Shown: in pieces, positions 14,464-36,137 of the stretch | How the letters are laid out: every line of letters begins with the position of its first letter | Numbering within the stretch: the first letter of the stretch is position 1 | Assembly: GCF_026000375.1 (NCBI RefSeq) | Contig: NZ_AP026708.1 | Coordinates: forward strand, 188,501 to 252,500 | Reading direction: 5' to 3' | DNA length: 64,000 nt | Origin: Pseudodesulfovibrio portus | GTDB taxonomy: Bacteria > Desulfobacterota > Desulfovibrionia > Desulfovibrionales > Desulfovibrionaceae | Translations under genes and position numbers: made by a program | The notes under the pieces: model-generated | The model's input: only the letters and a program-made list of their open reading frames with translations | The model's database searches: none | Told to the model about the DNA's origin: nothing

Positions 14464-14550
14464 GCCGAGGTGGTGGAATTGGTAGACACGCTGTCTTGAG
14501 GGGGCAGTGGAAGAAATTCCGTGGGGGTTCGAATCCCCCCCTCGGCACCA
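14464..14550 (+). tRNA. tRNA-Leu (anticodon GAG)
   Basis: An 87-nt class II tRNA. The acceptor stem GCCGAGG pairs with CCTCGGC, and CCA is encoded at 14548-14550. The anticodon stem CTGTC/GGCAG closes a 7-nt loop TTGAGGG with anticodon GAG, reading CUC and CUU. A long variable arm (about 14507-14521) and the T-arm with GTTCGAATCC follow. The 3' 21 nt are repeated at the far end of the island, so this gene is the integration target and was kept intact by the insertion. Confidence 0.95.
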
Positions 14551-14553
14551 CGA
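14530..14553. repeat. attL: left copy of the 24-bp island direct repeat
   Basis: These 24 bases, covering the last 21 nt of tRNA-Leu including CCA plus CGA, are identical to 36114-36137. Similarity continues with mismatches through the hairpin that follows. Confidence 0.88.
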
Positions 14554-14708: not shown

Positions 14709-16514
14709 ATGAATCTAACGCCATTGTGTTCCCTCGGCACCGTCGTTACACTCCCTCCAAAGATTTCTACCCAGAATCGTCACTTTCCCAGATCTTCTAG
14801 AAGAGAGCGGCGATCGCCTTCGTACCTTTACCTGCGCGGTAGTCTGTACTATTTTCGCTATGCATTCTCGGATATTGAGAGGGAGCAGGTTAGGCGATCC
14901 GAGATCAGGATCAGCTTGCGCACAGGTTATAGACGAGAAGCTCACCCGTTAGCATCCGCTTTGTATACTGAAATTCAGCATTTAATGAGGACTAGCCAAT
15001 TGGATTACATGGAAATCAGACGGCGGATGAATGAGGTGCTGTGCCGACTCTTGGAACAGGATTCGCGAGACACATCCCCGAGAGAGAATTATGAAATTGA
15101 AGGAATGGAGCCCATCACCCCGGTGGGCGTTGCGAATGCTTATGCCATGATGAACCAGTTCTCGATCAATTCGCCAGAGTTCAGGGAAAATCATGGCCCA
15201 AGAATTATGATTGAGCTGATTAGGAGTGGGGTTGTGGATCTGCAAGAAGTAACCCCTGACAATATCCATTTGATTATTAATGAATATATCAAAATTCAGC
15301 AGACTTACCAGAAGGTCATCCAGCATAGACTTAAGGGGGATCATTCTTTTGAAGCCCCCATTTTTGCCGAAAGGGCTGCAAATCAGCGGGCCCAGCAGTC
15401 CATAGTATTGCAAGATGTAGAGCCCAAAGCAAAACCAAATATCCCGGTCTCCGAGTTCATCAAAAAGTATGTGCAGACAAAGATCAAAGACGGTAATTGG
15501 CGGTTGAATGGAGTTGAGACCCATGAAAATAGGCTAGCCAATCTTGTCGATATACTTGGAGATATCAATATTCATTCAATCACTCGTGAGGACATGCGAG
15601 CAGTCCGAGATACTCTCAGGAAGTTACCGCCCAATAGGCAGCGATCAAAAGAGTACAAAGGGAAAACCGTCGATGAGTTGTTGGCATTAAAGCCAGCCAA
15701 AGTTTTATCTGTAAAAACAGTCAATATGACTTTAGAAGCTATTTCAAGCCTTTTTGAGTGGGGCATCCGCGAAGGAGAATTGAGTGCAAATCCAGCTAAG
15801 GGTTTACAGTTGAAGGATACTCGCCAAGCGATTACTTTACGAGATCCGTTTTCTTTAGAAGATATACAAACCATCTTTTCTTCACCATATTTCATCGAAG
15901 ACAAATACAAGAATGCAGGCTACTTTTGGATTCCTTTGATTGCTTTGTATTCCGGCATGAGACTTGAGGAAATTGCTCAATTATATCTGGGAGATATTTA
16001 CCAGGATGAAGATGGGGTTTGGGTTTTTGATATCAACGACAATCCCGATAGAACAGGCCAGATTGACAAGCAGGTGAAGAATATCAATGCAAAAAGGTTA
16101 GTTCCCTTACACCACGACCTGATTGAGATAGGTTTACTTAAGTATTACGATAGAATGATCTCAAAAGGAGAGGCTCGTCTTTTCCCGCTGCTGAATAAGA
16201 CTGAAAAGGTGAAGAAGTATGGAAAGCAGCCGGGTAAGAAGTTAGGCGACCTAGTCAAGTCGCTGGATTTGACGGGCAAGAAGTCATTTCACTCATTCAG
16301 ACATACATTTAGTGACTATTTCAAACAACGCGGTGAGCATACAGATATTTTCCGCCAAGTTTATGGGCATGAGATTCCGGGCCTAGCTGGTAACCAGTAT
16401 GGTTCGAAATTCCCGCCCCAAAAATGTTTGGATGAAGTGGTGTCTAAATTGATTTTTAATTTGAATTTAAGTCAGTTGCGAAAGTCAAAGCATGCTCTTG
16501 GGCATGAGGGATAA
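14709..16514 (+). CDS. int: Tyrosine-type site-specific integrase (island integrase)
   Basis: A 601-aa phage-type integrase. The N-terminal region has a DUF6538-like stretch (PSYLYLRGSLYYFRYAF, about residues 36-52). A SAM-like core-binding domain follows (about 250-350), then the catalytic domain with the first Arg in YSGMRLEEIAQLYLGD, a conserved beta-hairpin Lys region, the HxxR box HSFRHTFSDYF, HEI in YGHEIPG, and a probable nucleophile Tyr in GNQYGSKFP. It lies next to attL and reads into the island. The start at 14709 has only a weak GATGAGG ahead. Its stop is 10 bp before the preferred start of the primase-helicase gene, so the two are likely coupled. Confidence 0.92.
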   Translation: MNLTPLCSLGTVVTLPPKISTQNRHFPRSSRRERRSPSYLYLRGSLYYFRYAFSDIEREQVRRSEIRISLRTGYRREAHPLASALYTEIQHLMRTSQLDYMEIRRRMNEVLCRLLEQDSRDTSPRENYEIEGMEPITPVGVANAYAMMNQFSINSPEFRENHGPRIMIELIRSGVVDLQEVTPDNIHLIINEYIKIQQTYQKVIQHRLKGDHSFEAPIFAERAANQRAQQSIVLQDVEPKAKPNIPVSEFIKKYVQTKIKDGNWRLNGVETHENRLANLVDILGDINIHSITREDMRAVRDTLRKLPPNRQRSKEYKGKTVDELLALKPAKVLSVKTVNMTLEAISSLFEWGIREGELSANPAKGLQLKDTRQAITLRDPFSLEDIQTIFSSPYFIEDKYKNAGYFWIPLIALYSGMRLEEIAQLYLGDIYQDEDGVWVFDINDNPDRTGQIDKQVKNINAKRLVPLHHDLIEIGLLKYYDRMISKGEARLFPLLNKTEKVKKYGKQPGKKLGDLVKSLDLTGKKSFHSFRHTFSDYFKQRGEHTDIFRQVYGHEIPGLAGNQYGSKFPPQKCLDEVVSKLIFNLNLSQLRKSKHALGHEG

Positions 16515-16524
16515 GGAATGGAAG

Positions 16525-18621
16525 ATGGATTATTGCCCTGTAGAAACAGATCGAATTAGCGTTTTGCGATATCATGTACTCAAGAAGATCACCGAAAACC
16601 CACTTTCCTTTTTAAAGAGGATTTTGCCAAATGGGCGAATTGCCGGAGGCGGTGTGTTTCATGATAAAGAATTACGATTTCGTGTCTTTTTTGAGCATGG
16701 CAGGAATAGCCACGGAAACATCGGCAGGTGGGATCGAGACGATGATCTGTTCGCGCCATTCAGTGAGAGCGGCATCGGACAAGACTTCGGCCAGGATTTT
16801 ATTTCACTTTACGCAAAAGTGCGGGGGGCAAGCTTGTCTGGCGGGATGAGCGAGATGCAGGCAATAGAGGAACTGGCTGGGGACTATGCCGTTCCATGTG
16901 AGGCCCTGGATAATGAGGTCGTAGGTTGGAAACAGGTTGAGATTGATGATCTGGAAATTTCCAATTCAATCTACGACGTGAAGGGATATCATCAGCTAAG
17001 TCCGCAGGAGACTGAGTTGCGGAAGTACAGCTATTCAAACAAATTACATGAGATTTATAACCGTCCGAACGATTTTCATAGGGGAGCCCGCCGAATGTAT
17101 GATCGTGACGGAAAGCTCATGGGACTCATGTTTGTTGGCAATAATGGTCAAGCGGCCTTGAAAACGCGGTGGGTGAAAAAGCGAAATGGCAGAAATGGCG
17201 AGTGGCATTACTCGAATTTCGAGAAGAATCCATACCCATTCGACAAGACTCACCTGGCTGCTCAATCAAAGGGAAAGACCGTTTACGTAATCAGTGATCC
17301 GGTTTTGGCTGACCAATTTGAAAAGTGGCAAGGGGAGGGCATTACCGGCCTTAAAGGGGCTCTCCTTCAAACATGGTTCGGCGGGAAAGAGACCGTCGTT
17401 GATTTGGATTGGGAGGCCCTTAAGCACCACGCCCTACGGGTTGTTGTTCGTGAGACAAAGGAAGATCTTCTGCTCGCCCAGGCTATCCTTGAACAAGTAG
17501 TAGGGCAGCACGGTCTGAAGTCTATCTCGTTTTTCCGTTATGGGACCGAGGCTGTTTACACAGATTCCGTACTCTATTCATTTGATGATAGCCGAGCTTT
17601 CAACCTTGCCGATGATGCCTTCCTGTTCCAACTCACCAAAGAAGACATTTACGTCGGACTCGGCCTGGAAGAACGTGTCGAGGTTCCCGAAGGAGAGATC
17701 GATGAGCAGAGTGACTCCCTTGTGTGTATTGAGGGCGTGCTTGAACGCGAAATCGCAACCATGCTGTACGCCTACGATGGCGTGGGAAAAAGCATGATCG
17801 CGCTGAGCGTGGGCTATGCCCTTGCAAGCGGTGAAAACGTCTTCGGTGCGACGTGGAAGGTCCCTGTACGGCGAAGAGTTTTGTATGTCGATGGAGAGAA
17901 TCCCCAGAAGGTTCTAGATCGACGTGAAGCAGCTTTTCGTCGCTGCTATGACCTGGAGGAATCGTCACCGTATTTTCGGATGATGTCATCAAGCAAAGAA
18001 GGAAAGTCCTTCGATCTGACCGACAAGGAGTTTCGAGACAGGCTGTTGAGCGAGTTGTTCACACCATCTGGCAAGCGAAAAGTGGACGTACTGATTCTTG
18101 ACAACTGGAGTGCATTATACTCCGGTCAGGAGGAAAGAGCATGGCGAGAAGTTAATGAATTCCTGGCCGAATTGAAGCGTGCCAGAATAGCCATCCTGTT
18201 CGTGCATCACGCAGACGACGCCGGTCCGAGTAAACCAGATGGTTACCGTAAGAAGAATCGTTTTTTCGATAATCGATTTTGTGCGCTGAAAAGTGAAACG
18301 AAGTTCAAACGGTTTCACAACAAAGATCGTCTGACCTGGCTGAGTGTGAGCATCCATAACCCAAAAGCCAGAGGGGAGGCTGAGGATGGTGAGTTCACCT
18401 TGTGGATGTCGTTCGTCAAGAATCAGTCCGGTGAAGAGCGAGCCTTTTGGCTTGTAGATGCCGACGACCGAGCAAAGAGCATTTTTGAGCTTCGTGCGCT
18501 TGGGATGAGCTACGAAGACATTGGCAAAGACAAGAAGGTTGATTGCAGCAAAAACACTGCCAATGACAGCATCAAGGAAAACGGACACCCTGACCCAGGA
18601 AAGTGGGCAAAATCCAAATAA
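16525..18621 (+). CDS. Primase/RepA-like helicase (AAA_25) protein
   Basis: A 698-aa replication-type protein. The N-terminal part (to about 100) resembles the DnaG-like zinc-domain region without the Cys ligands (GRWDRDDDLFAPFSESGIG, DFISLYAKV). Residues 240-350 could be a Toprim-like domain (KTVYVISDPVLADQFEKW). The C-terminal part is a RecA-like hexameric helicase of the RSF1010 RepA/AAA_25 type: Walker A YDGVGKSM near 422, Walker B VDVLILDN near 530, then ILFVHHADDAG. It probably primes and unwinds the excised element. ATG 16525 has AAGGA 7 nt ahead; ATG 16504 overlaps int. Composition is AT-richer than the backbone. Confidence 0.78.
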   Translation: MDYCPVETDRISVLRYHVLKKITENPLSFLKRILPNGRIAGGGVFHDKELRFRVFFEHGRNSHGNIGRWDRDDDLFAPFSESGIGQDFGQDFISLYAKVRGASLSGGMSEMQAIEELAGDYAVPCEALDNEVVGWKQVEIDDLEISNSIYDVKGYHQLSPQETELRKYSYSNKLHEIYNRPNDFHRGARRMYDRDGKLMGLMFVGNNGQAALKTRWVKKRNGRNGEWHYSNFEKNPYPFDKTHLAAQSKGKTVYVISDPVLADQFEKWQGEGITGLKGALLQTWFGGKETVVDLDWEALKHHALRVVVRETKEDLLLAQAILEQVVGQHGLKSISFFRYGTEAVYTDSVLYSFDDSRAFNLADDAFLFQLTKEDIYVGLGLEERVEVPEGEIDEQSDSLVCIEGVLEREIATMLYAYDGVGKSMIALSVGYALASGENVFGATWKVPVRRRVLYVDGENPQKVLDRREAAFRRCYDLEESSPYFRMMSSSKEGKSFDLTDKEFRDRLLSELFTPSGKRKVDVLILDNWSALYSGQEERAWREVNEFLAELKRARIAILFVHHADDAGPSKPDGYRKKNRFFDNRFCALKSETKFKRFHNKDRLTWLSVSIHNPKARGEAEDGEFTLWMSFVKNQSGEERAFWLVDADDRAKSIFELRALGMSYEDIGKDKKVDCSKNTANDSIKENGHPDPGKWAKSK

Positions 18622-20563: not shown

Positions 20564-20904
20564 GATAGTTCTCCTGCCTGTTAAATGTTTAACCTGTATG
20601 ATTGTTTTCGAATGTTAAGTTTAACATTTGTGTGAGTATGGGAAGTGTTTTATGGTATTTATTAATCATATTAATAAGATACAATTACCAAGCCTAGTAA
20701 AAGTGAGGAGGGTGGGACGAACTGTAGCCCTGAAAAAGAAGGGATTGGGAAGGTGTATGTTCGCTATATGATAGTGACCGATTTGTTTAATAAATTTAAT
20801 AATCTTAGTTGGATGTCTTAAAATGTGTATCGTACATACAAATTACCATACGTTCGTTGCGCGGAGAGCTTGCTCGTAATGCTTTTTGTATATACGATAG
20901 TTCC
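20564..20904. other. 341-bp divergent control region with two palindromes
   Basis: AT-rich region between two divergent genes. GTTAAATGTTTAAC (20580-20593) is a perfect 6-bp-arm palindrome, and AATGTTAAGTTTAACATT (20611-20628) a perfect 8-bp-arm palindrome with a 2-nt spacer. Both lie 17-65 bp ahead of the YagK/YfjJ-type gene and look like operator sites. No other gene is seen. Confidence 0.55.
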
Positions 20905-21306
20905 ATGTCACCAAAAAACCTTATAGTTCATGAATCCGATCCAGAGGAGCAGGCTGCGAAGTTCGCCAAGAAGGCTCTTGAGGCGTTGACGTTCAAAAAA
21001 AACCAAAAAGCCCCTCTTTCCATCCGCCTGGATACCGATGTGCTTGAATACCTAAAGTTGATGACGAACGGGAAGTACCAACCAGCGATCAACACGATCT
21101 TGCGAGTTTATATGGAGTATCCACTGGACAGGCTGGCTGAGGCCTTGGGGGAAGACACTCATCCTTTACAGCATTCAAAAAAACCGACAAGCATCCGACT
21201 AGATGAAGACGTGCTCAGCTGGTTTAAAAATGGTGGAGATGGCTACCAGACTCGCATCAATCAGGTTCTGCGGGCCTTCATAGTGTTCTCAAAGGCGGAT
21301 GGGTAG
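20905..21306 (+). CDS. Tandem BrnA-like ribbon-helix-helix protein
   Basis: A 133-aa protein with two copies of the BrnA antitoxin-type DNA-binding unit: KAPLSIRLDTDVLEYLKLMTNG and following helix (about residues 34-68), and KKPTSIRLDEDVLSWFK followed by GYQTRINQVLRAFI (about 93-128). The second copy matches the BrnA consensus closely; the first has diverged. Ribbon-helix-helix proteins normally work as dimers, so one chain may form its own two-fold unit. No BrnT toxin lies beside it, so it is more likely an element regulator, possibly of the nearby palindromes. ATG 20905 has no clear ribosome binding site; a TTG 32 codons upstream is possible. Confidence 0.7.
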   Translation: MSPKNLIVHESDPEEQAAKFAKKALEALTFKKNQKAPLSIRLDTDVLEYLKLMTNGKYQPAINTILRVYMEYPLDRLAEALGEDTHPLQHSKKPTSIRLDEDVLSWFKNGGDGYQTRINQVLRAFIVFSKADG

Positions 21307-21573: not shown

Positions 21574-24231
21574 ATGTCAAAGAGCTACACCAAAGCCCAA
21601 TTTTGGAAATGTGCTATGCAGGTTAACCCCGTTGGCTACATCAGCTACCGGGGGGATGATCATGGCATGACGCAGGATGACTATAATCAGGCACTCCTGA
21701 AGTATGCTCAGGAACAGAACATAAAAGTCCTAGGCTTGGCTGATCATGGCAATGTCGATGGTGTGGATGCTATTCGCACCCTCATGAATGACCATGAAAT
21801 CTTAGTCTTTCCCGGATTTGAGATTGCTTCCAGCGAAAAAGTGCATTTTGTTTGTCTGTACCCGGAGGAAACCACAACAGTCGAACTGCATAGATATTTA
21901 GGCGACTTAAAGCTTCTTGACCCTGAAGATGGGATTCGCCCATCGCGGCTTAGCGGCGAGCAACTATTGCGAGTTGTAGACGACCACGGAGGGCTAGTCT
22001 ACGCGGCTCACTGCATAGACGATAGTGGCTTATTGCAAAAAAGGTTAAGTCACATCTGGCAAAATCCATTGCTTAAAGCCGCTCAGATTCCATCTACGAT
22101 CGAAGCTCTTAAAGGCATTGATGGTGATTTTTATCGGAGAGTGATCCTCAATAAAGATCCAGCCTACCAACGGGAAAGCCCTGTTGCTGTAATTAACGCC
22201 AAGGATGTTGCCATGCCTGAAGACTTGGCCAACCCCAAAGCCTCTTGTTTGATCAAGATGACCAATCCCAGTTTCGAGGCGTTTAAATTAGCCTTTCAAG
22301 ACCCTGAATCCCGTGTCCGTCTCAATAGCGACATTTCAGAATCCTACTACTCAAGACTTGAACGGTTGCGGGTTACGGGTGGGTACCTTGATGGCTTAGA
22401 TATTGGTTTTTCTGAGCATCTCAATGCCATTATTGGTGGTCGCGGCACAGGAAAATCAACTTTGTTGGAATGCATACGATACGTGCTTGATTTGCGTCCC
22501 ATCGGAAAGAATGCTCAGAAGCAGCATGATGAGATCATTAAAGAAAATTTCGGAAAATCAAAAGCAAGGGTAGAGTTGGCCATTCGCTCCTCAAAGATGA
22601 ATGGCAGACGATTCACGCTGTCCCGCCGATACGGGGAAAGCACCAGTATTCAGGATGAACAGGGGCAACCCTCAAGCTTTACCCCCAGAGATTTGTTGCC
22701 GGAAGTTGAAATCTTCGGCCAAAATGAGATTTATGAAATTGCCCAAGACCCGGTCGGGCAAGGCCAGTTGCTTGAGCGTTTCTTGGAATCGGGGCAGTCA
22801 GATGCCGAACGAGCCATTCAAGAAGCCATCACAAAGCTGTCAGAAAACCGTGTAAAAGTTGTCGATGCATTAAAGGGAGTCTCGGAAATCGAAGATGAAG
22901 TTGCTCGTCTTCCCAAGCTCGAAGAACAGCTTGAACAGTTCAACAGTTTGGGGATTGGCGAAAAGCTGAAGATCATTCCTCACCTTGAACAGGCAAAGAG
23001 AATTATCAAGCGTACGAATGAGCAAGAAGGGCCAAGCCTTGAAAGAAGTGTTAACGCTGTTCGCGACAATCTGCCCGACACAATATTTTTGAGCGATACA
23101 GCTATTGAAAAACTCCCTGGGGTGGAAATTTTCAAAAAAATTCGCGCAGAATTGGATTCTATGCGAAATGAAACTGAGGCTTTGCTCCAGGAATGGCAAA
23201 AGAAATACGACGGTCGTGCCCGCCAAATCGAAATCCTTTCAAGTCAACTTCTTGAGGTTGTAAAAAATGAAGAAGAAGTCTTAGAGAAAAACTTCAAAGC
23301 ACTTCCCTCTTGTGAAGGGAAAACAGGACAGCAAGTAGGTGAGGAGTATCAGCGATTGATGCGAGATATAGAAAAGATTCGTCCCCAAAAGGCGATGATT
23401 GCATCTCGCGAACAGTTCCATGCCTCGCTTCTTAAACGACGAAAGGCTATTTTGCAGGACCTTTCCATTCAACGTTCAGAGAGATCGGCGTATTTTGAAC
23501 GAAGTCTCAAGAAACTGAATAAACGACTTGCAGGGAAACTTCGTCTACAGGTTCAGACCGAGGCTGACAGACAACCCGTCGTGAATTTCCTTTTAAATTG
23601 TAAACTGGAAGGCGTTGGAGAAAAACGTTTGGCCTGGATCAATGAAAATGATGATTTTTCACCAGTACGGTTGGCTGAACTTATTCGGCTTGGAGCGGAT
23701 TCGTTGCGAGAAGCGAATTGGGGGATAACTCCAACAGTAGCTGATGCTCTGGTGAAATTATCCCCTGCTCAAGCCTTGCAACTGGAGGAAATTGAGCAGC
23801 CAGACATGATTATCATTGAACTTAATACAGCTCATGAGGGGGCGGAAAAGTTCCGTATACTTAACAGGTTGTCAACGGGGCAGCAATGCACAGCAATTTT
23901 GCACTTGCTTCTTTTAGAGAATAAAGACCCGTTACTGATGGACCAGCCAGAGGATAATCTAGACAATGCCTTTATCGCTGACCGTATTGTGACTGAATTG
24001 CGACGTGCTAAAATTGCAAGGCAATTTATCTTTGCTACACACAACGCAAATATCCCCGTCTTTGGTGATGCGGAATGGATTGGAGTGTTTGAGGCGTCAG
24101 ACAACCAAGCTATCATGCGAAACGAAGCACAAGGTGCGATTGACGTACCGCATGTACGAGACCAAGCCGCAGCAATCCTCGAAGGGGGTAAGGCTGCATT
24201 CAACCAGCGCAGACTTAAGTATGGGTACTAA
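21574..24231 (+). CDS. PHP-SMC ATPase, TrlF/Ppl-like (candidate defence protein)
   Basis: An 885-aa fusion of an N-terminal PHP phosphoesterase domain (about 10-240) and an SMC/ABC-type ATPase. The PHP domain keeps LGLADHGN (D57, H58), FPGFEI (E83), VHFVCLY (H91) and VYAAHC, but the first HxH is QVN (16-18) and the final SDAH region reads INAKD, so catalysis may be lost or altered. The ATPase has Walker A GGRGTGKST near 288-296, a long coiled-coil middle (about 400-690), signature LSTGQQ near 767, Walker B LLMDQPEDN near 788, and FATHNANIP. PHP-ATPase proteins of this build include the Ppl defence protein. ATG 21574 has AAGGA 9 nt ahead; ATG 21565 abuts it. The next gene starts 9 bp after the stop. 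Confidence 0.82.
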   Translation: MSKSYTKAQFWKCAMQVNPVGYISYRGDDHGMTQDDYNQALLKYAQEQNIKVLGLADHGNVDGVDAIRTLMNDHEILVFPGFEIASSEKVHFVCLYPEETTTVELHRYLGDLKLLDPEDGIRPSRLSGEQLLRVVDDHGGLVYAAHCIDDSGLLQKRLSHIWQNPLLKAAQIPSTIEALKGIDGDFYRRVILNKDPAYQRESPVAVINAKDVAMPEDLANPKASCLIKMTNPSFEAFKLAFQDPESRVRLNSDISESYYSRLERLRVTGGYLDGLDIGFSEHLNAIIGGRGTGKSTLLECIRYVLDLRPIGKNAQKQHDEIIKENFGKSKARVELAIRSSKMNGRRFTLSRRYGESTSIQDEQGQPSSFTPRDLLPEVEIFGQNEIYEIAQDPVGQGQLLERFLESGQSDAERAIQEAITKLSENRVKVVDALKGVSEIEDEVARLPKLEEQLEQFNSLGIGEKLKIIPHLEQAKRIIKRTNEQEGPSLERSVNAVRDNLPDTIFLSDTAIEKLPGVEIFKKIRAELDSMRNETEALLQEWQKKYDGRARQIEILSSQLLEVVKNEEEVLEKNFKALPSCEGKTGQQVGEEYQRLMRDIEKIRPQKAMIASREQFHASLLKRRKAILQDLSIQRSERSAYFERSLKKLNKRLAGKLRLQVQTEADRQPVVNFLLNCKLEGVGEKRLAWINENDDFSPVRLAELIRLGADSLREANWGITPTVADALVKLSPAQALQLEEIEQPDMIIIELNTAHEGAEKFRILNRLSTGQQCTAILHLLLLENKDPLLMDQPEDNLDNAFIADRIVTELRRAKIARQFIFATHNANIPVFGDAEWIGVFEASDNQAIMRNEAQGAIDVPHVRDQAAAILEGGKAAFNQRRLKYGY

Positions 24232-24240
24232 GGTGACTTC

Positions 24241-25479
24241 ATGTTGAAATCAGAGCTTCTAGAAATAATTGCCAACGGTGAAAATTCAGGAGTGGAATTC
24301 AAGCGAGATGACATTCGTCCTGAACAGTTGGGCAAGGAAATTGTTGCCTTAGCCAATTTGATGGGGGGGCGGATTTTGCTTGGTGTGGAAGATGATGGGA
24401 GCATCACAGGTCTTCACAGGGATAATCTACAGGAATGGGTGTTGAATGTCTTTCGCGACAAGGTGCACCCACAACTTATTCCTTTTTATGAAGAGGTTGT
24501 TGTCGAGTCCGACCTTCGTGTAGCGGTTATTACTCTTTCCCAAGGGGTGTCTAAACCATATGTCCTTAGGCACAATAATCGTGAGGATACGTATATTCGT
24601 TTAGGTGATCGTTCAGAGTTGGCAACACGAGAGCAGCAGATACGATTATTCGAATCAGGAGGACTTCTTCATGTTGAAGTCCTCCCTGTGGCAGGAACAT
24701 CAATTGCCAGCCTTGATTTAGACAGATTGGAATATTACCTGCGGCGGGTCATTTCTGACCCTGAAGTTCCTTCGAATGATGATGAATGGATTGAACGGCT
24801 AACCGGGATGGGGCTGATGGTCGCTGATGGCATCGGCAACACCGTTTGTTCCATTGCTGGACTTCTGTGCTTTGGCATCAATCCTAGACGATTCCTTCGA
24901 CAAGCAGGTATACGCGTGATGGTTTTTGATAGCGATGACAAAGAATATCAAGCCGTTTTAGACAGACATCTTGATGGTCCACTTGTGGCTCGTTGGCAGG
25001 AAGACGACACAGGTGGAAAACAATTGGTAGATGAAGGGTTGATTGAAAAATTCGTGGCAACTATTTTAGCTTTCGTAACTAGTGAAGATAGTGAAATCGA
25101 CGATGGACTTCGTAGGGATAAAGATTGGCACTACCCAAAAGAGGCCATCCGCGAAACAGTTCTCAATGCATTGGCTCATCGCGACTGGACACGTTCTGTT
25201 GAGATTGAAGTGTCTATATTTTTCAATCGGTTGGAAGTTATAAGCCCTGGAAGGCTCCAAAATTCAATGACAGTAACAAAAATGAAGGCGGGCCAGCGTT
25301 CTCCGAGGAATCCTTTGATTATGGATATATTGCGCGACTATGGCTATGTTGACTCCAGAGGAATGGGGATTCGCACTAAAGTTATCCCGTTAATGCGAAA
25401 GCTAAACAACACTGAGCCTGTATTTGATGCCACAGATGATTATTTAAAAACAGTGCTGCTTAAACAAGGTGCCGAATGA
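24241..25479 (+). CDS. AlbA_2 (Schlafen-type) plus RecG-like HATPase protein
   Basis: A 412-aa two-domain protein. Residues 5-130 are an AlbA_2/Schlafen domain (GVEFKRDDIRPEQLGKEIVALANLMGGRILLGVEDDGSITG, as separate family motifs EFK, ALAN, GG and GVEDDG). Residues 285-405 resemble the HATPase_c_4 domain of RecG-like transcription factors (AIRETVLNALAHRDW, LEVISPGRL, GYVDSRGMGI). Such proteins are annotated as DNA-binding regulators, and Schlafen domains can also be RNases, so the role is open. Its ribosome binding site AAGGTGA overlaps the stop of the PHP-SMC gene, indicating one operon. It could be the sensor, regulator or effector partner of that ATPase. Confidence 0.82.
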   Translation: MLKSELLEIIANGENSGVEFKRDDIRPEQLGKEIVALANLMGGRILLGVEDDGSITGLHRDNLQEWVLNVFRDKVHPQLIPFYEEVVVESDLRVAVITLSQGVSKPYVLRHNNREDTYIRLGDRSELATREQQIRLFESGGLLHVEVLPVAGTSIASLDLDRLEYYLRRVISDPEVPSNDDEWIERLTGMGLMVADGIGNTVCSIAGLLCFGINPRRFLRQAGIRVMVFDSDDKEYQAVLDRHLDGPLVARWQEDDTGGKQLVDEGLIEKFVATILAFVTSEDSEIDDGLRRDKDWHYPKEAIRETVLNALAHRDWTRSVEIEVSIFFNRLEVISPGRLQNSMTVTKMKAGQRSPRNPLIMDILRDYGYVDSRGMGIRTKVIPLMRKLNNTEPVFDATDDYLKTVLLKQGAE

Positions 25480-25574: not shown

Positions 25575-26177
25575 TTAAAGTTCGTTTTCATATACGCTTT
25601 TGATTTCCTCTGGTTGAATTCCCAAGTAGGTTAATGTTTGTTTTTGTGACGAGTGGTTAAAGCACTCCATAAGCACAGGGATGTCAACTTTGTGGGTCAT
25701 TCTTTGGTGGTACCCCCAAGTCTTTCTGAGGCTATGGCTACCGTAGTTCCCCTTAAGGTTGATTGATCTACACCATTGCTTCACGAGTCTGTTTACGGAA
25801 GGGACCGTCAAAGCATGGCCATGCCTCTGTTGGCTCTGGAAGAGTGGGGCGGTATCATCAGTATCAACTCCATCCAGGTACCCACGCAGGGCAGTTGTGA
25901 CTGTCTTGTTGAGGGTAATCCTTCGTTCTTTTCCCGTTTTTTTCTCCTTCAGAACAAGCTCATCACCAGGTTCAAGATCTCTGACCATACCAATTTTAAT
26001 CTGCAAGAGATCTGAAGCTCGGAGATTCGTATTGATTCCCATAGTGAATAGAGCCAAGTCGCGAGGCTTGCTCGTAAGGATGGCTTTGATTGCCTTCACG
26101 TCTCGCAGCTTACGAATAGGATCGACAGTAATTCGAGAGCCCGGCTTGGGATGATTTGAGTTCATTCCTTTCTGCAT
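25575..26177 (-). CDS. Short tyrosine recombinase (catalytic domain only)
   Basis: A 200-aa tyrosine recombinase without an arm- or core-binding N-terminal domain. All catalytic residues are visible: Arg in TNLRASDLLQI, Lys in KEKKTGKERRI, the HxxR box in HSLRKTWGYH, the later His in FNHSSQKQ, and a nucleophile Tyr in TLTYLGIQ. Relatives of this size are annotated as integrases or as inversion/resolution enzymes. ATG 26177 has AAAGGTGA six bases ahead; GTG 26186 is possible. It is convergent to the PHP-SMC/AlbA_2 operon. Four GTTAAC sites lie in its upstream region. It may resolve, invert or integrate a nested sub-element. Confidence 0.82.
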   Translation of the reverse strand: MQKGMNSNHPKPGSRITVDPIRKLRDVKAIKAILTSKPRDLALFTMGINTNLRASDLLQIKIGMVRDLEPGDELVLKEKKTGKERRITLNKTVTTALRGYLDGVDTDDTAPLFQSQQRHGHALTVPSVNRLVKQWCRSINLKGNYGSHSLRKTWGYHQRMTHKVDIPVLMECFNHSSQKQTLTYLGIQPEEIKSVYENEL

Positions 26178-26518
26178 AACAATCACCTTTCACAGTTAGT
26201 TAACTTCTGTTAAAAAATAATCAATAGTTAACAAATGTCAAGGGCGTTTTTGGGTGGATTGGGCTGGATTTAGGCTTAACTAATTAAAATTGCAGGAAAA
26301 GATGAATGGCGACACTCGTTAACTTTTAGATAATAGTTAACAAGATCGCTTCAACCCAATTAACTACATTGTTTTTCAGTCTATTGGATATAGTGCTTTG
26401 CGTGGAATCCCAAGTTATGTGATATGTAGAACGCCTCCCGACTAATGAGAATCCGTCGGGAGGCGTTTTTATGTATTGTTAGCTGAATAGTTCAGTATCG
26501 ACCTTAAGCATTCAAATT
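26178..26518. other. 341-bp AT-rich region with four GTTAAC sites and a terminator
   Basis: GTTAAC occurs at 26199, 26227, 26318 and 26336, three of them in the context TAGTTAAC. A strong plus-strand terminator lies at 26430-26470 without a recognised plus-strand gene ahead of it. No protein gene is seen. Confidence 0.55.
26430..26470 (+). terminator. Strong intrinsic terminator with no assigned gene
   Basis: AACGCCTCCCGAC (26430-26442) pairs perfectly with GTCGGGAGGCGTT (26455-26467) and is followed by TTTTTA on the plus strand. The nearest plus-strand gene ends about 950 bp upstream, so a small RNA could end here. It may also serve the minus-strand oxidoreductase gene, though that side lacks a T-tract. 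Confidence 0.75.
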
Positions 26519-28699
26519 CTATTCTCTTTCAACTTTGCACATGAGCGCTGAGTGGGGCCAGCTGCCGATTTCCGGGCTACAGAATTCCGGCGAGTCGGGG
26601 CAGAGCATGTTGGTGTTCGACTCGAAGACGCCGAAGAGATCGGGAAGCTTCTCGTTGCGCTCTGGGAACCACCAGGAGTGCTGGGCGTCCACCATCTTCG
26701 GGTGCATGGCATCGGTGATGTGGACGCGCTGGCGGATGGAGCCGTGCGGTGAGGATATAACGGCCCAGTCGCCCTCAGACAGTCCCAGTTCCGCAGCCGT
26801 GTCCGGGTGGATCGAAAGCAATGGGTCGGGCACCTTCTTGCGCGCCTTTTCGATCTGCCGCTGTTCGGAGTGGTACATGGGCATGTACCGGCTGCCGGTG
26901 ATGAGGATGAGCGGATACTCTTCCGTTATCTCGGATTTGTCGCTCTTCGGGCTCCAGACAGGCTCCTTGTATACAGGGAGCGGGTCAGCACCCAGTTCCT
27001 CGAAGATCGAGGACTTGAGCTCGACCTTGCCCGACGGTGTCCCGAACCCGTCCTTCTCGTAGCGGCGGAATTCCCGCTCCCCGAAAAGGCCGTTCTGTTC
27101 GGCGAGCTTGTCGAAGTTCAGGCCGACCGGTTCCAGGCAATGGTCATAGACATCCTTGACGGTCTCCCACGGCCAGTACTCTTCCTGGCCGAGGCGCAGT
27201 CCCAGTTGCCTGTAGAAGTAATAGCTGTCCTTACGTTCCTCGATGGGGTCGATACCCTGCGGGCAGGCGACGCAGAAGCCGCCGGTCAGCCACAGCTCGG
27301 GCTGCTCCACGGTGGTGGACGCCGGGAAGACGTAGTCGGCCATGGCTGCGGACGGGGTCATGTAGTATTCCATGACCACATACAGATCGAGGGCCTTGAG
27401 CGCCTCGAACACCTGCTGCGTGTTGGGCAGGGAGAGCAGCGGATTGCTCGCCAGTGTGATGGCCGCCTTCACGGGATAGGGCTTGCCGGTGATGATGGCG
27501 TTCATGACCTCACGGGCGTGGGCGAGGTTGGACTGCCATGCCTCGGGGGGCATACAGTATCCTCTGGGCAGCTTCTGGTTGGCGGCGTAGTTGCGTTCCC
27601 AGCCGGGGAAACCGAAGAACGGGTACTTGTCCGCACCGAGCTGCTTGGCCTTCTGGCTCTCGGGCATCATGTCGTTGCACTCAAGGTATTCCCAGTCGTG
27701 AACCAAGCCGACGTTGGCCGCCTGGCTGAAGATGTCGCCGCCGGGAATTTCCAGGTTGCCCGTGATGGCGCGCAGGATCGCCCGACCGCGAGCGCACTGG
27801 GTGGAGTTGACGCCCTGCTTGTCCAGTCCAAGGCCGAAGGGGATCACGGCAGAAGCCGCAGTCGCGTACATGGTAGCGGATTCGACCACGAGGGCGGCCG
27901 GGATCGAGGTGATCTCCTCGACCTTTTCCGGCGTGTAGGATTCGACGGCGACTTTGAGTTCGTCAAATCCCACGGTGTGGTTGGCGACGAAATCCTTGTC
28001 GTAGAGATCGGTGACGATGATGTGCCGAATCCATCCCAGCATCAGCGCGAGGTCGGTGCCGGGGCGAATCTGCAGCCACAGGTCGGCCTTTTCGGCTTCG
28101 GGTGTTTTGCGCGGATCAACGACCATGAGCTTGGCGCCGTTCTTCCGTGCCGCAGCGACCATGGGGGCGACACCCATCGGGTTCGATTTGGAAGGATTGC
28201 ATCCCCACATGACGACGCATTGGGAATGTACGATATCGCTGCCCATGGCCATGCCGCCGTAAGTGGCGTACTCGGTGGCGCAGCTCGGACACATGCAGAT
28301 GGTGTTCACGCCGCAGGTGTTGGGGGAGCCGAAGAGGTTGAAGAAGCGGCGACAATCCCAGTGGTAGGTTCGTTTCGTTCCGTGGGTGAAGGTCAGGGTC
28401 TCGGCCCCGAACTCGTCGCGCAGCTTCGAGAGCTTCTCAGCCACTTCATCCAAGGCCTGCTCCCAGCTGATCCGCTCCCACTTGCCTTCGCCGCGCGCGC
28501 CGACCCGCTTCAGCGGGTAGTTCAGCCTATCGGGATGATAAATGTGGTCCAGCATCAAGCGGCCGCGCTCGCAGAGCGCTCCGTGGGTGATCGGATGATC
28601 GGGATCGCCGGTGATCTTCACAACCTTGCCGTTGTCGATATGTAGCAGCATGCCGCAGCGGGGATGACACAGTCCGCAATAACTTCTTCGTGTTTCCAT
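26519..28699 (-). CDS. Molybdopterin-dependent oxidoreductase, DMSO-reductase family
   Basis: A 726-aa catalytic subunit of the Mo/W-bisMGD family. The N-terminal 4Fe-4S motif is CGLCHPRC (Cys8, 11, 15) with a fourth Cys in ALCERG. The Mo-ligand region reads NTICMCPSCATEY near residues 130-142, with several candidate Cys ligands. Pterin-binding segments follow (VMWGCNPSKSNP, VVDPRKTPEAEKADLWLQIRPGTD) and a C-terminal molydopterin-dinucleotide domain (LITGSRYMPMYHSEQRQIEKARKK). There is no Tat signal, so it is probably cytoplasmic. No electron-transfer or membrane subunit gene is adjacent. The substrate is unknown. A DUF169 gene lies upstream on the same strand after 63 bp. Composition is host-like although it is inside the island. 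Confidence 0.88.
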   Translation of the reverse strand: METRRSYCGLCHPRCGMLLHIDNGKVVKITGDPDHPITHGALCERGRLMLDHIYHPDRLNYPLKRVGARGEGKWERISWEQALDEVAEKLSKLRDEFGAETLTFTHGTKRTYHWDCRRFFNLFGSPNTCGVNTICMCPSCATEYATYGGMAMGSDIVHSQCVVMWGCNPSKSNPMGVAPMVAAARKNGAKLMVVDPRKTPEAEKADLWLQIRPGTDLALMLGWIRHIIVTDLYDKDFVANHTVGFDELKVAVESYTPEKVEEITSIPAALVVESATMYATAASAVIPFGLGLDKQGVNSTQCARGRAILRAITGNLEIPGGDIFSQAANVGLVHDWEYLECNDMMPESQKAKQLGADKYPFFGFPGWERNYAANQKLPRGYCMPPEAWQSNLAHAREVMNAIITGKPYPVKAAITLASNPLLSLPNTQQVFEALKALDLYVVMEYYMTPSAAMADYVFPASTTVEQPELWLTGGFCVACPQGIDPIEERKDSYYFYRQLGLRLGQEEYWPWETVKDVYDHCLEPVGLNFDKLAEQNGLFGEREFRRYEKDGFGTPSGKVELKSSIFEELGADPLPVYKEPVWSPKSDKSEITEEYPLILITGSRYMPMYHSEQRQIEKARKKVPDPLLSIHPDTAAELGLSEGDWAVISSPHGSIRQRVHITDAMHPKMVDAQHSWWFPERNEKLPDLFGVFESNTNMLCPDSPEFCSPEIGSWPHSALMCKVERE

Positions 28700-28762
28700 C
28701 GTACACCTCTCCTATCCCTTGTAGGGACATGGCATTGGTTCGAGTAGTATTAATAGGTTTGG

Positions 28763-29608
28763 TTAGCTGTCTTCGCCCCAGGCCTTGGCGCTGCGTTCGA
28801 CCTTCTTGCGCACGCCCTTCCAGTCGGTTTCGTGGGCGAACATGGAATCGGGCAGGGCGGCCAGCATCTTCTCATAGAGGTCTAGAGAGACGGTGAACGT
28901 CAGCTCGTCGGTCTTCATGAACTTGCGGGCCGAAGGGTCGAAGCCGCCGATGACGGCCTTCTCCAATCCCTTGCCCTTGTAGTAGAGAGGCCAGCTGATC
29001 ATGTTGGTACAGCCCGCGCCAAAGGGGGAAACGACGCATTCCATGTCGCCGGTGGTGAAGGTGGCCTGGGTGAAGAGGCCGCTCAGCACTTCGGGCCGGG
29101 CAAAGAAGATGACGAACTCCGGCGGCACCTCGTCGGTGAACTGGGACAGCGGCTTGAAGATGCAGTACTTGCCGGTGGCTTCGCGCGGGTTCACCTCTTC
29201 CATGAACTTGCGCATGGCGTCGGGGTTGGGCATGTAGCGTTCGCCGTGCAAGGGCGTGCCTTCGAACCCGGTGGACACGTAATGCTCGATGAACCGCAGG
29301 TGGGGCTTCATCATCGAACAGTAGTACACGCCGCCGGGACAGCCGTATTCTTCGGCGGAAATATAGGCCGCGCCGCCCTTCTTCCGGGCCAGCCAGACGT
29401 TGCCCATGACGCAGGAGAACGACTTCATGACCTCCTGCATGTCCAGCTCGTGCTTATCTTCCAATTCCCGTGAGATGGGCGTGCCCGTTTTCGGTCCATA
29501 TGCGTTCTCCGGCAGGGTGTCGGCGTAGTAGACGCCGAAAGGCTCTTCGGCCAGGGCGAGATATTCGAGGAAGGTGGCGGTGCCGTCGAGTATGGTTTGC
29601 ATCGACAT
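28763..29608 (-). CDS. DUF169 domain protein
   Basis: A 281-aa soluble protein of the DUF169 family, whose function is unknown; members are common in methanogens and sulfate reducers. Visible motifs are LALAEEPFGVYYADTLPE near the N-terminus, GGAAYISAEEYGCPGGVYYCSM (Cys pair) around residue 80-100, FFARPEVLSGL, and SPFGAGCTNMISWPLYYKGKG. Conserved Cys residues might hold a metal or cofactor. GGAG precedes ATG 29608. It is the first gene of a pair with the molybdoenzyme and is divergent from the LysR gene, which probably controls both. Confidence 0.85.
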   Translation of the reverse strand: MSMQTILDGTATFLEYLALAEEPFGVYYADTLPENAYGPKTGTPISRELEDKHELDMQEVMKSFSCVMGNVWLARKKGGAAYISAEEYGCPGGVYYCSMMKPHLRFIEHYVSTGFEGTPLHGERYMPNPDAMRKFMEEVNPREATGKYCIFKPLSQFTDEVPPEFVIFFARPEVLSGLFTQATFTTGDMECVVSPFGAGCTNMISWPLYYKGKGLEKAVIGGFDPSARKFMKTDELTFTVSLDLYEKMLAALPDSMFAHETDWKGVRKKVERSAKAWGEDS

Positions 29609-29743
29609 GTCTGTCTCCTTTGGTAGGTCGTCTTGTGTCCACTCTCAGGCGGACGGGTTGCCTTTAGACTTACCTTCTCATACCATGCTCACAGATAAAA
29701 TAAACACGGCTGAATGGAAAATTCTATTCCTCTGGTGGGCATA

Positions 29744-30628
29744 ATGGTGCAAGAATTCCTGAATGACGTTCCCTTGCTGGTAGAGGTGGCCAGGCAGAAA
29801 AGTTTCACCAAGGCTGCGGATGCATTGGGGATCGGGGTCTCGACCCTTTCCAGACGCATCAAGCTGCTGGAAGAACGGATGGGGGTGCTGCTGTTTTACC
29901 GGGATACCCGGAACGTCGAGCTGACGGACAACGGCGCTTACCTCCTGGACCGCTGCGGCTTTATCCTTGAGGAGACTCAGAAGGCCTACGACTCGGTGGT
30001 CATGAACATGCAGAAGCCGTCCGGGCTGATCCGGGTCTGCATGTTTCGGGACCTCTATGAACGGCTACTGAGAGACGCGATATTGGATTTTGCGGCACAG
30101 TGGCCGGACATACAGATCGAACTGACCTTCGTGGAGCACCCCGTGGACATGCGCACGGACCCGTATGACGTGGCGTTTCTCATCGGCTCATCCGTGGCCC
30201 CGTCGCTGGTCGCCAGGAGGCTGCTCACTATTGAACCGCATCTCTACGCGGCTCCGGCCCTGCTTGAACGGTTCCCCACTCCCGAGGAACCGAACGACCT
30301 CCACAAACTCCCGTGCATCGCCTTGCAGCGGTTCGGGAATAGATGGCCCATGCACAACGGCAATAGGCAGGTCGTCGTCGAAGTGCAGCCCCAATACAGT
30401 TTCAGTTCGGTGGGAGTCTGTCTCGATTTTGCCTTGGCAGGACATGGCGTCGCCATGATCCGCGAGGGTGACGCCGAGCCGGACGAGAAGGCCGGACGCC
30501 TCGTGCGCGTGCTGCCGGATTGGAGCGCCGGGTTTGTGCATGACGTGAGCATGGTGACCGGTTCCAGCCAGCTCCCGCGAAGGGTCAGGCTGTTCATGGA
30601 CCACATCCTCGCCTCTGTTGCGCTGTGA
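29744..30628 (+). CDS. LysR family transcriptional regulator
   Basis: A 294-aa LysR-type regulator. The winged helix-turn-helix is at residues 5-62 (VARQKSFTKAADALGIGVSTLSRRIKLLEERMGVLLFYR), followed by an effector-binding domain of the periplasmic-binding-protein fold (LIRVCMFRDLYERLL onward). ATG 29744 fits the family N-terminus better than an in-frame ATG 30 bp upstream. It is divergent from the DUF169-molybdoenzyme pair, the classical arrangement for a LysR protein controlling its neighbours. The inducer is unknown. Confidence 0.9.
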   Translation: MVQEFLNDVPLLVEVARQKSFTKAADALGIGVSTLSRRIKLLEERMGVLLFYRDTRNVELTDNGAYLLDRCGFILEETQKAYDSVVMNMQKPSGLIRVCMFRDLYERLLRDAILDFAAQWPDIQIELTFVEHPVDMRTDPYDVAFLIGSSVAPSLVARRLLTIEPHLYAAPALLERFPTPEEPNDLHKLPCIALQRFGNRWPMHNGNRQVVVEVQPQYSFSSVGVCLDFALAGHGVAMIREGDAEPDEKAGRLVRVLPDWSAGFVHDVSMVTGSSQLPRRVRLFMDHILASVAL

Positions 30629-30634
30629 TCGCCC

Positions 30635-30829
30635 TTAGTTCGAGCGGATCTCCCGCATGATCTCCGCCGGGCTCTGCCCGAAGTGGCGTTTGAACTCGCG
30701 GCTGAACTGAGACGGGCTTTCATACCCCACGGCGTCGGCGGCGAGGTACGCCTTCATGTTTTCCTGCACCATCAGGTCGCGGGCACGGGCGAGGCGTATC
30801 TTCTTGAGGTACTGCAGCGGCGAGTCGGG
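30635..30829 (-). pseudogene. AraC family regulator, 3' remnant
   Basis: Only the C-terminal helix-turn-helix of an AraC-type regulator remains: SPLQYLKKIRLARARDLM, a diverged second helix-turn-helix AADAVGYESPSQFSREFKRHFGQSPAE, and the tail. The homology begins at SPLQY (about 30822); further upstream codons belong to a different gene on the other strand. The N-terminal ligand domain and first helix-turn-helix half are gone. It was evidently divergent from the flavoprotein that is also truncated at the same point. A 72-codon frame remains open by chance past the junction. Confidence 0.85.
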
Positions 30830-31184
30830 AAAATGCGTCCAGGCCGACGACATGAACGAAATTCTGGAGAAGATCCTGGCCGCCGACGTCCTGGTCCTGG
30901 CCAGCCCGGTCTATTTCCATTCCTTCAACGCCCACATGAAGACCTTCATGGACAGGGTCTGCCCCATCTACCCCCTGATTCACGACAAGGACGTCTATTT
31001 CATGGTGGCCGCTGCGGGCGGTAACCTGCCCGTTGGAAATGCGTTCAAAACGTTCAGGATTTTCACCGACTGCCTGGATGTGACGGAGAAGGGCACCCTC
31101 GCCGTGACCGGCGTCTGGGATGCCGGTGGAGTGAAGGGCAAAAGCGTCTGCAAGGACGCCTACGCAATGGGTCAGGCCGTCTGA
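30825..31184 (+). pseudogene. Flavodoxin/NADPH-dependent FMN reductase family, 5'-truncated
   Basis: The C-terminal two thirds of an iron-sulfur-flavoprotein-like or NADPH-dependent FMN reductase: GKCVQADDMNEILEKILAADVLVLASPVYF is the typical middle of the family (with the last of its Cys cluster), then MKTFMDRV and VAAAGGN. The N-terminal FMN phosphate loop (GSPR-type) and the first Cys residues are missing. The reading frame breaks from family homology at about 30825, where an AraC gene fragment on the opposite strand also ends. It is followed closely by the Tat cyclophilin-like gene, presumably once its operon partner. Confidence 0.82.
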
Positions 31185-31201
31185 TTCGATCGAGAGGCGA
31201 C

Positions 31202-31687
31202 ATGAAGAAGATACTCTCGCGTCGGGATTTCATGGTAAAAGGGGCTGTAGGTCTCGGAGCCGCATTCATCATGATTGGTGCTGCCGGTATACCGGGCACT
31301 GAAGCCTTGGCCGCTGAAGAAATGGAGGGAGAATCCATGCAGATAACAGTGAGCGCAAACGGAAAGACCATCGTTTATGAACTCAACGACAGCCAGGCCG
31401 CCAAGGACCTGTACGCCCAGTTGCCGCTGAGCATAGAAGTGGAAAACTACGGCGGCATCGAGAAGATATACTATCCACCGAAAAAGCTCGGTACCGGCAA
31501 CACCCCGCTGGTGAAAGCCGCCAAGCCCGGCACTCTCGCCTACTATGAACCCTGGGGTGATGTAGTGATGTTTTATGGCCGTTTTGGCTCAGCGTCGGGA
31601 TTGTATGAATTAGGACATGTGATTAAGGGAGGCGACCTTATCCATTACTTATCTGGTAATATTCATATCGAGGCTGACAATAATTAA
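31202..31687 (+). CDS. Cyclophilin-like fold protein with Tat signal
   Basis: A 161-aa precursor. The N-terminus has a twin-arginine signal (LSRRDFMVKGAVGLGAAFIM) ending near EALAAE at residue 38. The mature part is a cyclophilin-like (DUF-type, non-proline-isomerase) barrel: ITVSANGKTIVYELNDSQAAKDLYAQLPLSIEV as separate strands, IEKIYYPPKKLGTG, and PGTLAYYEPWGDVVMFYGRFG. Such proteins often sit beside flavoproteins and AraC regulators, matching the two remnants upstream. Its function is unknown; a ligand-binding or electron-transfer accessory role in the periplasm is only a guess. Composition drops in GC toward the 3' end. Confidence 0.8.
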   Translation: MKKILSRRDFMVKGAVGLGAAFIMIGAAGIPGTEALAAEEMEGESMQITVSANGKTIVYELNDSQAAKDLYAQLPLSIEVENYGGIEKIYYPPKKLGTGNTPLVKAAKPGTLAYYEPWGDVVMFYGRFGSASGLYELGHVIKGGDLIHYLSGNIHIEADNN

Positions 31688-31775
31688 TAGTGCAATTATT
31701 AATGCTGTTCGTTCTGCTTTGAATATATATTATTACCCTGGAATCTAAGGATTTTTAGGCTAGAGGAATTGAATC

Positions 31776-31816
31776 AGCCCCTGCTCCCGATTGGAGCAGG
31801 GGCTTTCGTATTTTTT
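31776..31816 (+). terminator. Intrinsic terminator between the cyclophilin-like gene and the AAA operon
   Basis: AGCCCCTGCTCC (31776-31787) pairs perfectly with GGAGCAGGGGCT (31793-31804), followed by TTCGTATTTTTT. It separates the two units and shows that the AAA gene starts after it. Confidence 0.85.
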
Positions 31817-31831
31817 AGGGAGAAAAAAATT

Positions 31832-32815: not shown

Positions 32816-32817
32816 CC

Positions 32818-35357: not shown

Positions 35358-35380
35358 TCACCAATAATCCCGAGGTAAAT

Positions 35381-35716: not shown

Positions 35717-35728
35717 AAGGAGAAAACA

Positions 35729-35914: not shown

Positions 35915-35920
35915 TAACAA

Positions 35921-35951
35921 GAGAGCCGCTGGCGGAATGCTGGCGGCTCTC
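35921..35951 (+). terminator. Hairpin at the end of the AAA-VWA operon
   Basis: GAGAGCCGC (35921-35929) pairs perfectly with GCGGCTCTC (35943-35951). The T-tract is poor (AATAAATTAA follows), so termination is likely but not certain. Confidence 0.6.
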
Positions 35952-36113: not shown

Positions 36114-36137
36114 CGAATCCCCCCCTCGGCACCACGA
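36114..36137. repeat. attR: right copy of the 24-bp island direct repeat
   Basis: Identical over 24 bp to 14530-14553 (3' end of tRNA-Leu plus CGA). It is not part of a second tRNA gene, because the sequence to its left is unrelated to tRNA. Confidence 0.88.

What the first reader, a model, noticed from the sequence alone, without database searches (positions are those of the whole stretch)
21574..25479. PHP-SMC ATPase paired with an AlbA_2/HATPase protein: candidate two-gene defence system
The first protein (885 aa) joins a PHP domain to an SMC/ABC-like ATPase with complete Walker A, signature, Walker B and His-switch, as in TrlF/Ppl-type proteins; Ppl is a reported anti-phage protein (from memory of published screens). 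The second starts 9 bp later with its ribosome binding site overlapping the first stop codon, and joins a Schlafen-type AlbA_2 domain to a RecG-like HATPase. Single-gene Ppl is known; this coupled pair on an integrase-bearing island is not one I can name. A plausible model is an ATPase that senses foreign DNA or RNA and a nuclease or regulator partner.
Basis: partly seen in the sequence, partly recalled or inferred. Interest (0 to 1): 0.85.

Follow-up and report, generated by a model that had tools for sequence, protein, structure and literature searches.

The report
TrlF–TrlG pair, altered-active-site branch
Two neighbouring genes on a mobile island encode a DNA-repair-like ATPase and a Schlafen-type (probably RNA-cutting) protein; the pair is already known as a locus that stops growth of an insect-killing bacterium when warmed, but relatives sit inside virus-defence operons, and this branch and the studied branch seem to have each lost a different one of the two active sites.

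Summary
The two genes are real, as described, 9 bp apart. Protein 1 is a TrlF-family ATPase (NCBIfam NF045780, 572.7 bits, cut-off 350); protein 2 joins Schlafen/AlbA_2 and HATPase domains. The pair is not nameless: it has the architecture of trlF-trlG of the Photorhabdus temperature restricting locus (PMC7554251). TrlG directly follows TrlF for 55 of 72 decidable TrlF genes in the named set. Relatives lie inside or beside type I and III restriction, BREX, Hma and Wadjet genes, so a defence-accessory role is likely, but untested. New here: the window belongs to a supported branch whose PHP metal motif HxH reads QxN (79 of 81 rows). TrlG partners of QxN TrlF keep the Schlafen catalytic Glu or Asp (Gln in 0 of 55). 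In the branch fitting the published locus, PHP is intact but that Glu is Gln (9 of 9 with data, plus 4 of 4 added later). The branches thus lack opposite sites. This is only two evolutionary events, and 22 of 77 decidable QxN TrlF have no TrlG. Best model: an SMC-like ATPase restrains a Schlafen RNase that stops growth when primary defence fails. New variant of a known kind.

The parts
21574..24231 (+). trlF homologue (885 aa): PHP-like domain with Q16-x-N18 in place of HxH, joined to an SMC/Rad50-like ABC ATPase with a short coiled coil
   Evidence: (NF045780 572.7 bits)
24241..25479 (+). trlG homologue (412 aa): Schlafen/AlbA_2 domain with E14, E19, D51 kept, joined to a GHKL-type HATPase domain
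14530..14553 (+). attL: 3' end of tRNA-Leu (gag) and the next bases
36114..36137 (+). attR: exact 24-nt copy of the tRNA-Leu 3' end, followed by a diverged copy of the region behind the tRNA
14709..16514 (+). tyrosine integrase (DUF6538 + Phage_integrase) next to the tRNA
16492..18621 (+). AAA_25 ATPase of the island

Best explanation
The pair is a trlF-trlG (TRL-type) module of the branch whose PHP motif I reads QxN, carried as cargo on a tRNA-Leu integrative island. Most likely it is a two-gene defence accessory that stops growth of the infected cell. TrlF, an SMC/Rad50-like ATPase, senses invader DNA or failure of the primary DNA-targeting system and holds TrlG in check; released TrlG, a Schlafen-type RNase with its own GHKL ATP switch, cuts tRNA or other RNA. 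Shown here: gene pair, domain content, conserved ATPase motifs, kept Schlafen residues, loss of HxH, frequent adjacency, defence genes as neighbours of relatives. Inferred: sensing, restraint, RNA cleavage, growth arrest. The temperature arrest of Photorhabdus TRL would then be accidental triggering of such a module.
For: TrlF family membership. Schlafen fold match of TrlG (Foldseek E about 1e-4) and, weakly, kinase ATPase fold (VanSA, E 0.012); E19 aligns with the residue that differs between the SLFN14 chains ESTHVEFK and ESTHVAFK, the latter titled E211A. Adjacency: 55 of 72 decidable TrlF genes in the named set, 76 of 110 in all. Embedding: hsdM-hsdS-trlF-trlG-hsdR, pglX-trlF-trlG-pglZ-brxL, hsdR-trlF-trlG-hsdS; Hma, Wadjet and type III neighbours of QxN-branch pairs; 18 of 108 further loci hold two type I components (10) or BrxL/PglZ (8) by a narrow reference search. 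PMC7554251: trlG mutations and operon deletion relieve growth arrest and a plasmid with the whole operon restores it. PMC12839542 (passages): Schlafen RNases fused to a minimal histidine kinase beside BREX and related systems in at least 1017 taxa, among nucleases called backup suicidal effectors.
Against: None of the 8 island proteins scanned in the window is an R-M or BREX component. 22 of 77 decidable QxN TrlF have no TrlG, so TrlF may work alone. TrlG occurs in a BREX-like operon without TrlF (L140). In the branch that fits the published locus, where TrlG was genetically shown to be needed, aligned TrlG carry Gln at the catalytic Glu, so arrest there may not be Schlafen catalysis. The genome-level methylase and PglZ proximity came from HxH TrlF only, not from QxN ones.
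Confidence: 0.55

Rival explanations
1. TrlF is the effector and TrlG an optional regulator or nucleic-acid-binding partner. The QxN PHP-like domain, though changed, still acts (H58, E83, H91, H146, D211 are kept), with the ATPase as gate.
For: QxN stands in 79 of the 81 rows of the branch and the block around it is nearly fixed among those 79 (C13 73, A14 77, L15 76, V17 76, P19 75), which looks like selection, not decay; 22 of 77 decidable QxN TrlF lack TrlG, some right after hsdMSR or brxL.
Against: Both motif I histidines are replaced. In Photorhabdus no trlF mutation was found among suppressors while trlG was hit repeatedly (PMC7554251).
Confidence: 0.25
2. The pair is a stress or temperature growth-control switch, as proposed for Photorhabdus TRL, with no primary defence role.
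For: Published induction and growth arrest at 36 C (PMC7554251).
Against: Embedding among R-M, BREX, Hma and Wadjet genes and on plasmids and islands; patchy presence, 4 of 25 same-genus genomes over the TrlF cut-off, own included.
Confidence: 0.12
3. A selfish stabiliser: a toxin-antitoxin-like unit that keeps its island or plasmid.
For: TrlG-like matches in 107 plasmid records, 82 of them over at least 80% of the query; trlG-dependent arrest in Photorhabdus.
Against: Loss of the whole operon is tolerated in Photorhabdus; TrlF without TrlG and TrlG without TrlF both occur.
Confidence: 0.08

Closest known systems
Temperature Restricting Locus trlR-trlF-trlG of Photorhabdus laumondii (PMC7554251)
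   Same: TrlF followed by an AlbA_2 + HATPase_c_4 TrlG; same order and coupling.
   Different: Window pair lies in the QxN branch. Published TrlG wild-type residues fit HxH-branch TrlG (8 of 13 at one offset in L009, L010, L120) but at most 4 of 13 at any single offset in the window, 3 at offset 0. The window TrlG is 29-30% identical to the TrlG of pYR3 and IncC. No adjacent trlR-like gene was found by one search.
Ppl (NCBIfam NF042955; PADLOC Ppl)
   Same: Partial HMM match, best stretch in the C-terminal ATPase part.
   Different: 154.7 bits against a cut-off of 1000.
Schlafen RNase + minimal histidine kinase 'backup' effectors of BREX (PMC12839542, passages seen)
   Same: Domain make-up of TrlG; neighbourhood of BREX relatives.
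   Different: The main text has no hit for PHP or TrlF; the window pair is not beside BREX.
PARIS (AriA/AriB) and type I-linked anticodon nucleases such as PrrC/RloC (the latter recalled)
   Same: Works-like comparison: an ATPase restrains a tRNase that backs up R-M or BREX.
   Different: Different nuclease folds (recalled); TrlF matches AriA only in parts of the ATPase.

Membership tests
TrlF family (NCBIfam NF045780) | score above the curated cut-off of 350 bits | tested here: met
   572.7 bits, residues 8-884
TRL operon (trlRFG) | trlF directly followed by an AlbA_2 + HATPase_c_4 gene | tested here: met
   9 bp gap; Pfam hits
TRL operon (trlRFG) | small trlR gene upstream | tested here: inconclusive
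   phmmer with one TrlR-like protein from L023 marked none beside the window pair; the published TrlR itself was not available
TRL operon (trlRFG) | HxH PHP and Gln at TrlG position 19, as in its best-fitting aligned relatives | tested here: not met
   window has Q16-x-N18 and E19; residue 19 of the P. laumondii protein itself was not seen
PHP phosphoesterase | motif I HxH metal ligands | tested here: not met
   QxN in the window
PHP phosphoesterase | remaining metal-ligand positions | tested here: met
   H58, E83, H91, H146, D211 kept; their role is recalled from PHP proteins
Schlafen/AlbA_2 nuclease | fold and catalytic acidic residues | tested here: met
   Foldseek to SLFN14, SLFN13, SAMD9 tRNase, E about 1e-4; E14 and E19 align with SLFN14 ESTHVEFK
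Schlafen/AlbA_2 nuclease | RNA cleavage | not testable with these tools
   needs biochemistry
Ppl | score above the curated cut-off of 1000 bits | tested here: not met
   154.7 bits
Anti-phage defence system | protection against phage or plasmid | not testable with these tools
   no experiment possible; neighbourhood evidence only

The most novel reading that the evidence does not exclude
One two-protein defence module has moved its catalytic job between its subunits. From an ancestor with both sites intact (HxH TrlF with E19 TrlG still exists), the window branch retired the PHP site of TrlF and kept the Schlafen site of TrlG, while the branch of the published TRL kept the PHP site and retired the Schlafen Glu. 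The Photorhabdus temperature arrest is then autoimmunity of this module.
Probability: 0.25. Interest if true: 0.75.

Novelty: new variant of a known kind. Interest (0 to 1): 0.5.

Why it matters
If right, it turns an unexplained published phenotype (growth arrest of Photorhabdus at 36 C) into a testable case of a defence module misfiring, and gives two natural variants of one ATPase-nuclease pair with opposite active sites, so one can ask directly which subunit acts. It also adds a module found inside or beside five kinds of DNA-targeting defence genes (type I restriction and BREX repeatedly; Hma, Wadjet and type III restriction in one or two loci each).

Tried and rejected
Ppl and Spaf_1101 membership: rejected, below cut-offs. 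RecG helicase: rejected, only the HATPase_c_4 domain named after RecG C-termini is present. A common second partner behind solo QxN TrlF: ten chosen downstream neighbours gave mixed hits (GH18 chitinase, AAA_5, SWIB, peptidase S11, WYL, TIR) and 4 of 10 none; two further ones (L011, L013) are annotated as relaxase and transposase. In one search I tabulated the wrong motif columns (20 and 22); one search replaced them. PHP by Pfam: no hit in the window protein. Foldseek of TrlF listed SMC, Rad50, RecN and RecF-type ATPases and no PHP structure in its first 50 rows; a PHP query from L073 found nothing among PDB sequences at E 0.1. Phages: no megablast match to the pYR3 pair; TrlG matches in 21 phage records, each under 60% identity. 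Rows left out of the 114-row TrlF table: ORFs under 700 aa, L001-L006 and L095-L110 (repeats of loci taken again or not TrlF). L031 (no N-terminus) was left out of the tree; L038 (HVN) and L075 (N-terminus not alignable) are unclassified. L092's TrlG is poorly aligned at position 19 and is counted as E. L116 has a TrlG-like ORF overlapping TrlF by 128 bp and counts as no TrlG under my gap limit. One search stopped with a script error after printing the residue table; one search built the tree but failed at display, repeated.

Papers: PMC7554251 seen as abstract, passages, section 9 and part 1 of section 10; PMC12839542 as passages only; others as search listings. Searches for earlier description: (38 papers hold the word TrlF, 20 listed); several listings were capped. 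The 2025 preprint on bacterial Schlafens and Krishnan 2020 on ABC ATPases (PMC7544218), both cited in PMC12839542, are not held; either may describe this pair.
Full report
Two ORFs lie at 21574-24231 and 24241-25479, separated by 9 bp, the second gene's ribosome site overlapping the first stop. They sit in a stretch of G+C 0.43-0.50 (15-26 kb); the 1-kb windows elsewhere are 0.50-0.63. The stretch begins right behind tRNA-Leu(gag) and an integrase. An exact 24-nt copy of the tRNA 3' end recurs at 36114-36137, so an att-bounded element would span about 14.55-36.13 kb. In two same-genus relatives the same tRNA is followed after 262 bp (G400) or 1,191 bp (G401) by a short match (154-157 bp) to sequence that in the window lies at 38.6 kb (distances worked out), as expected of an insertion hotspot. 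TrlF above the family cut-off occurs in 4 of 25 same-genus genomes, own included.

Identity. Protein 1 scores 572.7 bits against NCBIfam TrlF (cut-off 350) and stays below the Ppl and Spaf_1101 cut-offs. Protein 2 has SLFN_AlbA_2 and HATPase_c_4. This is the architecture of trlF and trlG in the temperature restricting locus of Photorhabdus laumondii (PMC7554251). There, spontaneous trlG mutations and deletion of the operon allow growth at 36 C, and a plasmid with the whole operon restores arrest; no trlF mutation was found. In the parts I read (section 9 and part 1 of section 10, and passages) the authors suggest life-cycle timing or protection from IS elements, not phage defence.

Adjacency. 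I collected TrlF homologues from plasmids, from named genomes (best 80 of 583 confirmed) and from a sample of 395 genomes of the window's phylum (29 TrlF over the cut-off in 27 genomes). Of 114 TrlF of 700 aa or more, 76 have a TrlG homologue directly downstream, 34 do not, and 4 end at a contig edge. In the named set (75 TrlF) it is 55 with, 17 without, 3 at an edge. In the phylum sample it is 17 with, 11 without (one of these, L116, has a TrlG-like ORF overlapping by 128 bp) and 1 at an edge. 72 of the 76 gaps lie between -47 and +37 bp.

Neighbourhood. Annotated relatives read hsdM-hsdS-trlF-trlG-hsdR, pglX-trlF-trlG-pglZ-brxL, hsdR-trlF-trlG-hsdS. With a narrow reference set taken from these, 18 of 108 further loci hold at least two type I components (10) or BrxL/PglZ (8). 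PADLOC on immediate same-strand neighbours, the reference loci included, finds a PglX model matched by 8 of 61 upstream genes and a PglZ model by 7 of 62 downstream genes. In 52 outer genes of the same loci neither is among the first 25 of 191 families, the last of which has 2 members; but that control also holds defence-type methylases (2 of 52 each for several models) and mad2 (3 of 52). Of ten further chosen neighbours, Hma (L046 both sides, L039), Wadjet JetB (L016, L017), type III restriction (L021) and a helicase resembling GajB (L123) were found; two gave no hit and one only a weak one. As a genome-level control, 75 N6_Mtase matches of 100 bits or more lie in 27 TrlF-bearing genomes of about 91.5 Mb (my count); 5 fall within 10 kb of the 29 TrlF against 0.54 expected, P about 2e-4. 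Of 8 PglZ matches in those genomes 2 lie within 10 kb of a TrlF. All of these are beside HxH TrlF, so this control says nothing about the window's own branch, for which the evidence is the embedded loci. The window pair itself has no such neighbour among the 8 island proteins scanned.

Two branches and the active sites. Among 113 TrlF on a maximum-likelihood tree, 79 have QxN at PHP motif I (window Q16, N18), 32 have HxH, and 2 are unclassified (L038 reads HVN; L075 is not alignable there). The QxN rows are one side of a branch (SH-aLRT 99, one change), with the two unclassified rows inside, so 79 of 81; the motif columns were among the 876 columns used. Around the motif the block CALQVNP is nearly fixed in the 79, and H58, E83, H91, H146 and D211 are kept in 78 or 79 of 79. 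In TrlG, E14 and E19 align with ESTHVEFK of SLFN14, E19 with the residue that is Ala in the chain titled E211A. Position 19 in QxN pairs: E in 52 (one of them poorly aligned), D in 3, Q in 0 of 55. In HxH pairs: E in 9, Q in 9, no data in 1 of 19. The nine Q cases lie in one branch of ten TrlF, with the pYR3 and IncC pairs. That is also the branch that the published Photorhabdus mutations fit best: 8 of 13 wild-type residues at one offset in L009, L010 and L120, against at most 4 of 13 at any single offset in the window. Four more plasmid pairs of that kind all have HxH and Q19. Thus the two branches lack opposite sites. This is one change each on the tree, so it is a pattern to test, not a statistical result. 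Photorhabdus akhurstii carries a QxN pair (L023), so both kinds occur in one genus if the published locus is of the HxH kind as the fit suggests; the P. laumondii sequence itself was not available.

Structures. The TrlG model (mean pLDDT 89.8) matches DIP2311 (3lmm, E 3e-20, TM 0.43 of the query), SLFN13/14 and SAMD9 tRNase structures (E 1e-4 to 9e-4) and, weakly, the VanSA kinase ATPase domain (E 0.012). The TrlF model (89.9) matches SMC, MukB, JetC and Rad50 heads; no PHP structure was among the first 50 rows.

Mechanism. The simplest reading is an SMC-like ATPase controlling a Schlafen RNase, comparable to PARIS or to type I-linked anticodon nucleases (the latter recalled). Against it stand 22 of 77 decidable QxN TrlF without TrlG, and the Gln in the very branch that fits the locus where TrlG was shown by genetics to be needed. 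The rival in which TrlF acts and TrlG helps is therefore kept at 0.25.

Novelty. The pair is published as a temperature locus; Schlafen-kinase proteins are published as BREX neighbours (PMC12839542, passages). I saw no mention of the QxN branch or of the opposite losses in the listings of searches, several of them capped, and two likely sources could not be opened. New variant of a known kind.

Noticed in passing
window 26519-36113: The right half of the att-bounded stretch has host-like G+C and carries what look by eye like a molybdopterin oxidoreductase, a LysR-type regulator, a MoxR-like ATPase and a VWA-type protein, so the element looks composite or the right repeat belongs to another integration.
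   Followed up: partly
window 25575-26186: A second, short tyrosine-recombinase ORF (203 aa, Phage_integrase 5.7e-18) lies in reverse right behind trlG.
   Followed up: no
window 20809-21306: A 165-aa protein with two BrnA-antitoxin matches upstream of trlF; no BrnT partner was among the 8 island proteins scanned.
   Followed up: no
L117 4330-10136: One BREX-like locus holds two different TrlG homologues: a window-like one (646 bits) after a 1194-aa gene, and a distant one (131 bits) after an HxH TrlF.
   Followed up: partly
L140 6269-7807: A window-like TrlG (550 bits, 512-aa frame) sits between a 1167-aa and a 777-aa gene in what looks like a BREX operon, with no TrlF.
   Followed up: partly
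L143 5391-6632: A TrlG-like gene (319 bits) lies in what looks by eye like a CRISPR-Cas locus (Cas1-like gene, then repeat-like reading frames).
   Followed up: no
L023 8615-12893: Photorhabdus akhurstii carries a QxN-type trlF-trlG preceded by a small TrlR-like gene; its neighbours (by eye trmE- and yidC-like downstream, selA/selB-like upstream) are not those of the published polA-dsbA site.
   Followed up: partly
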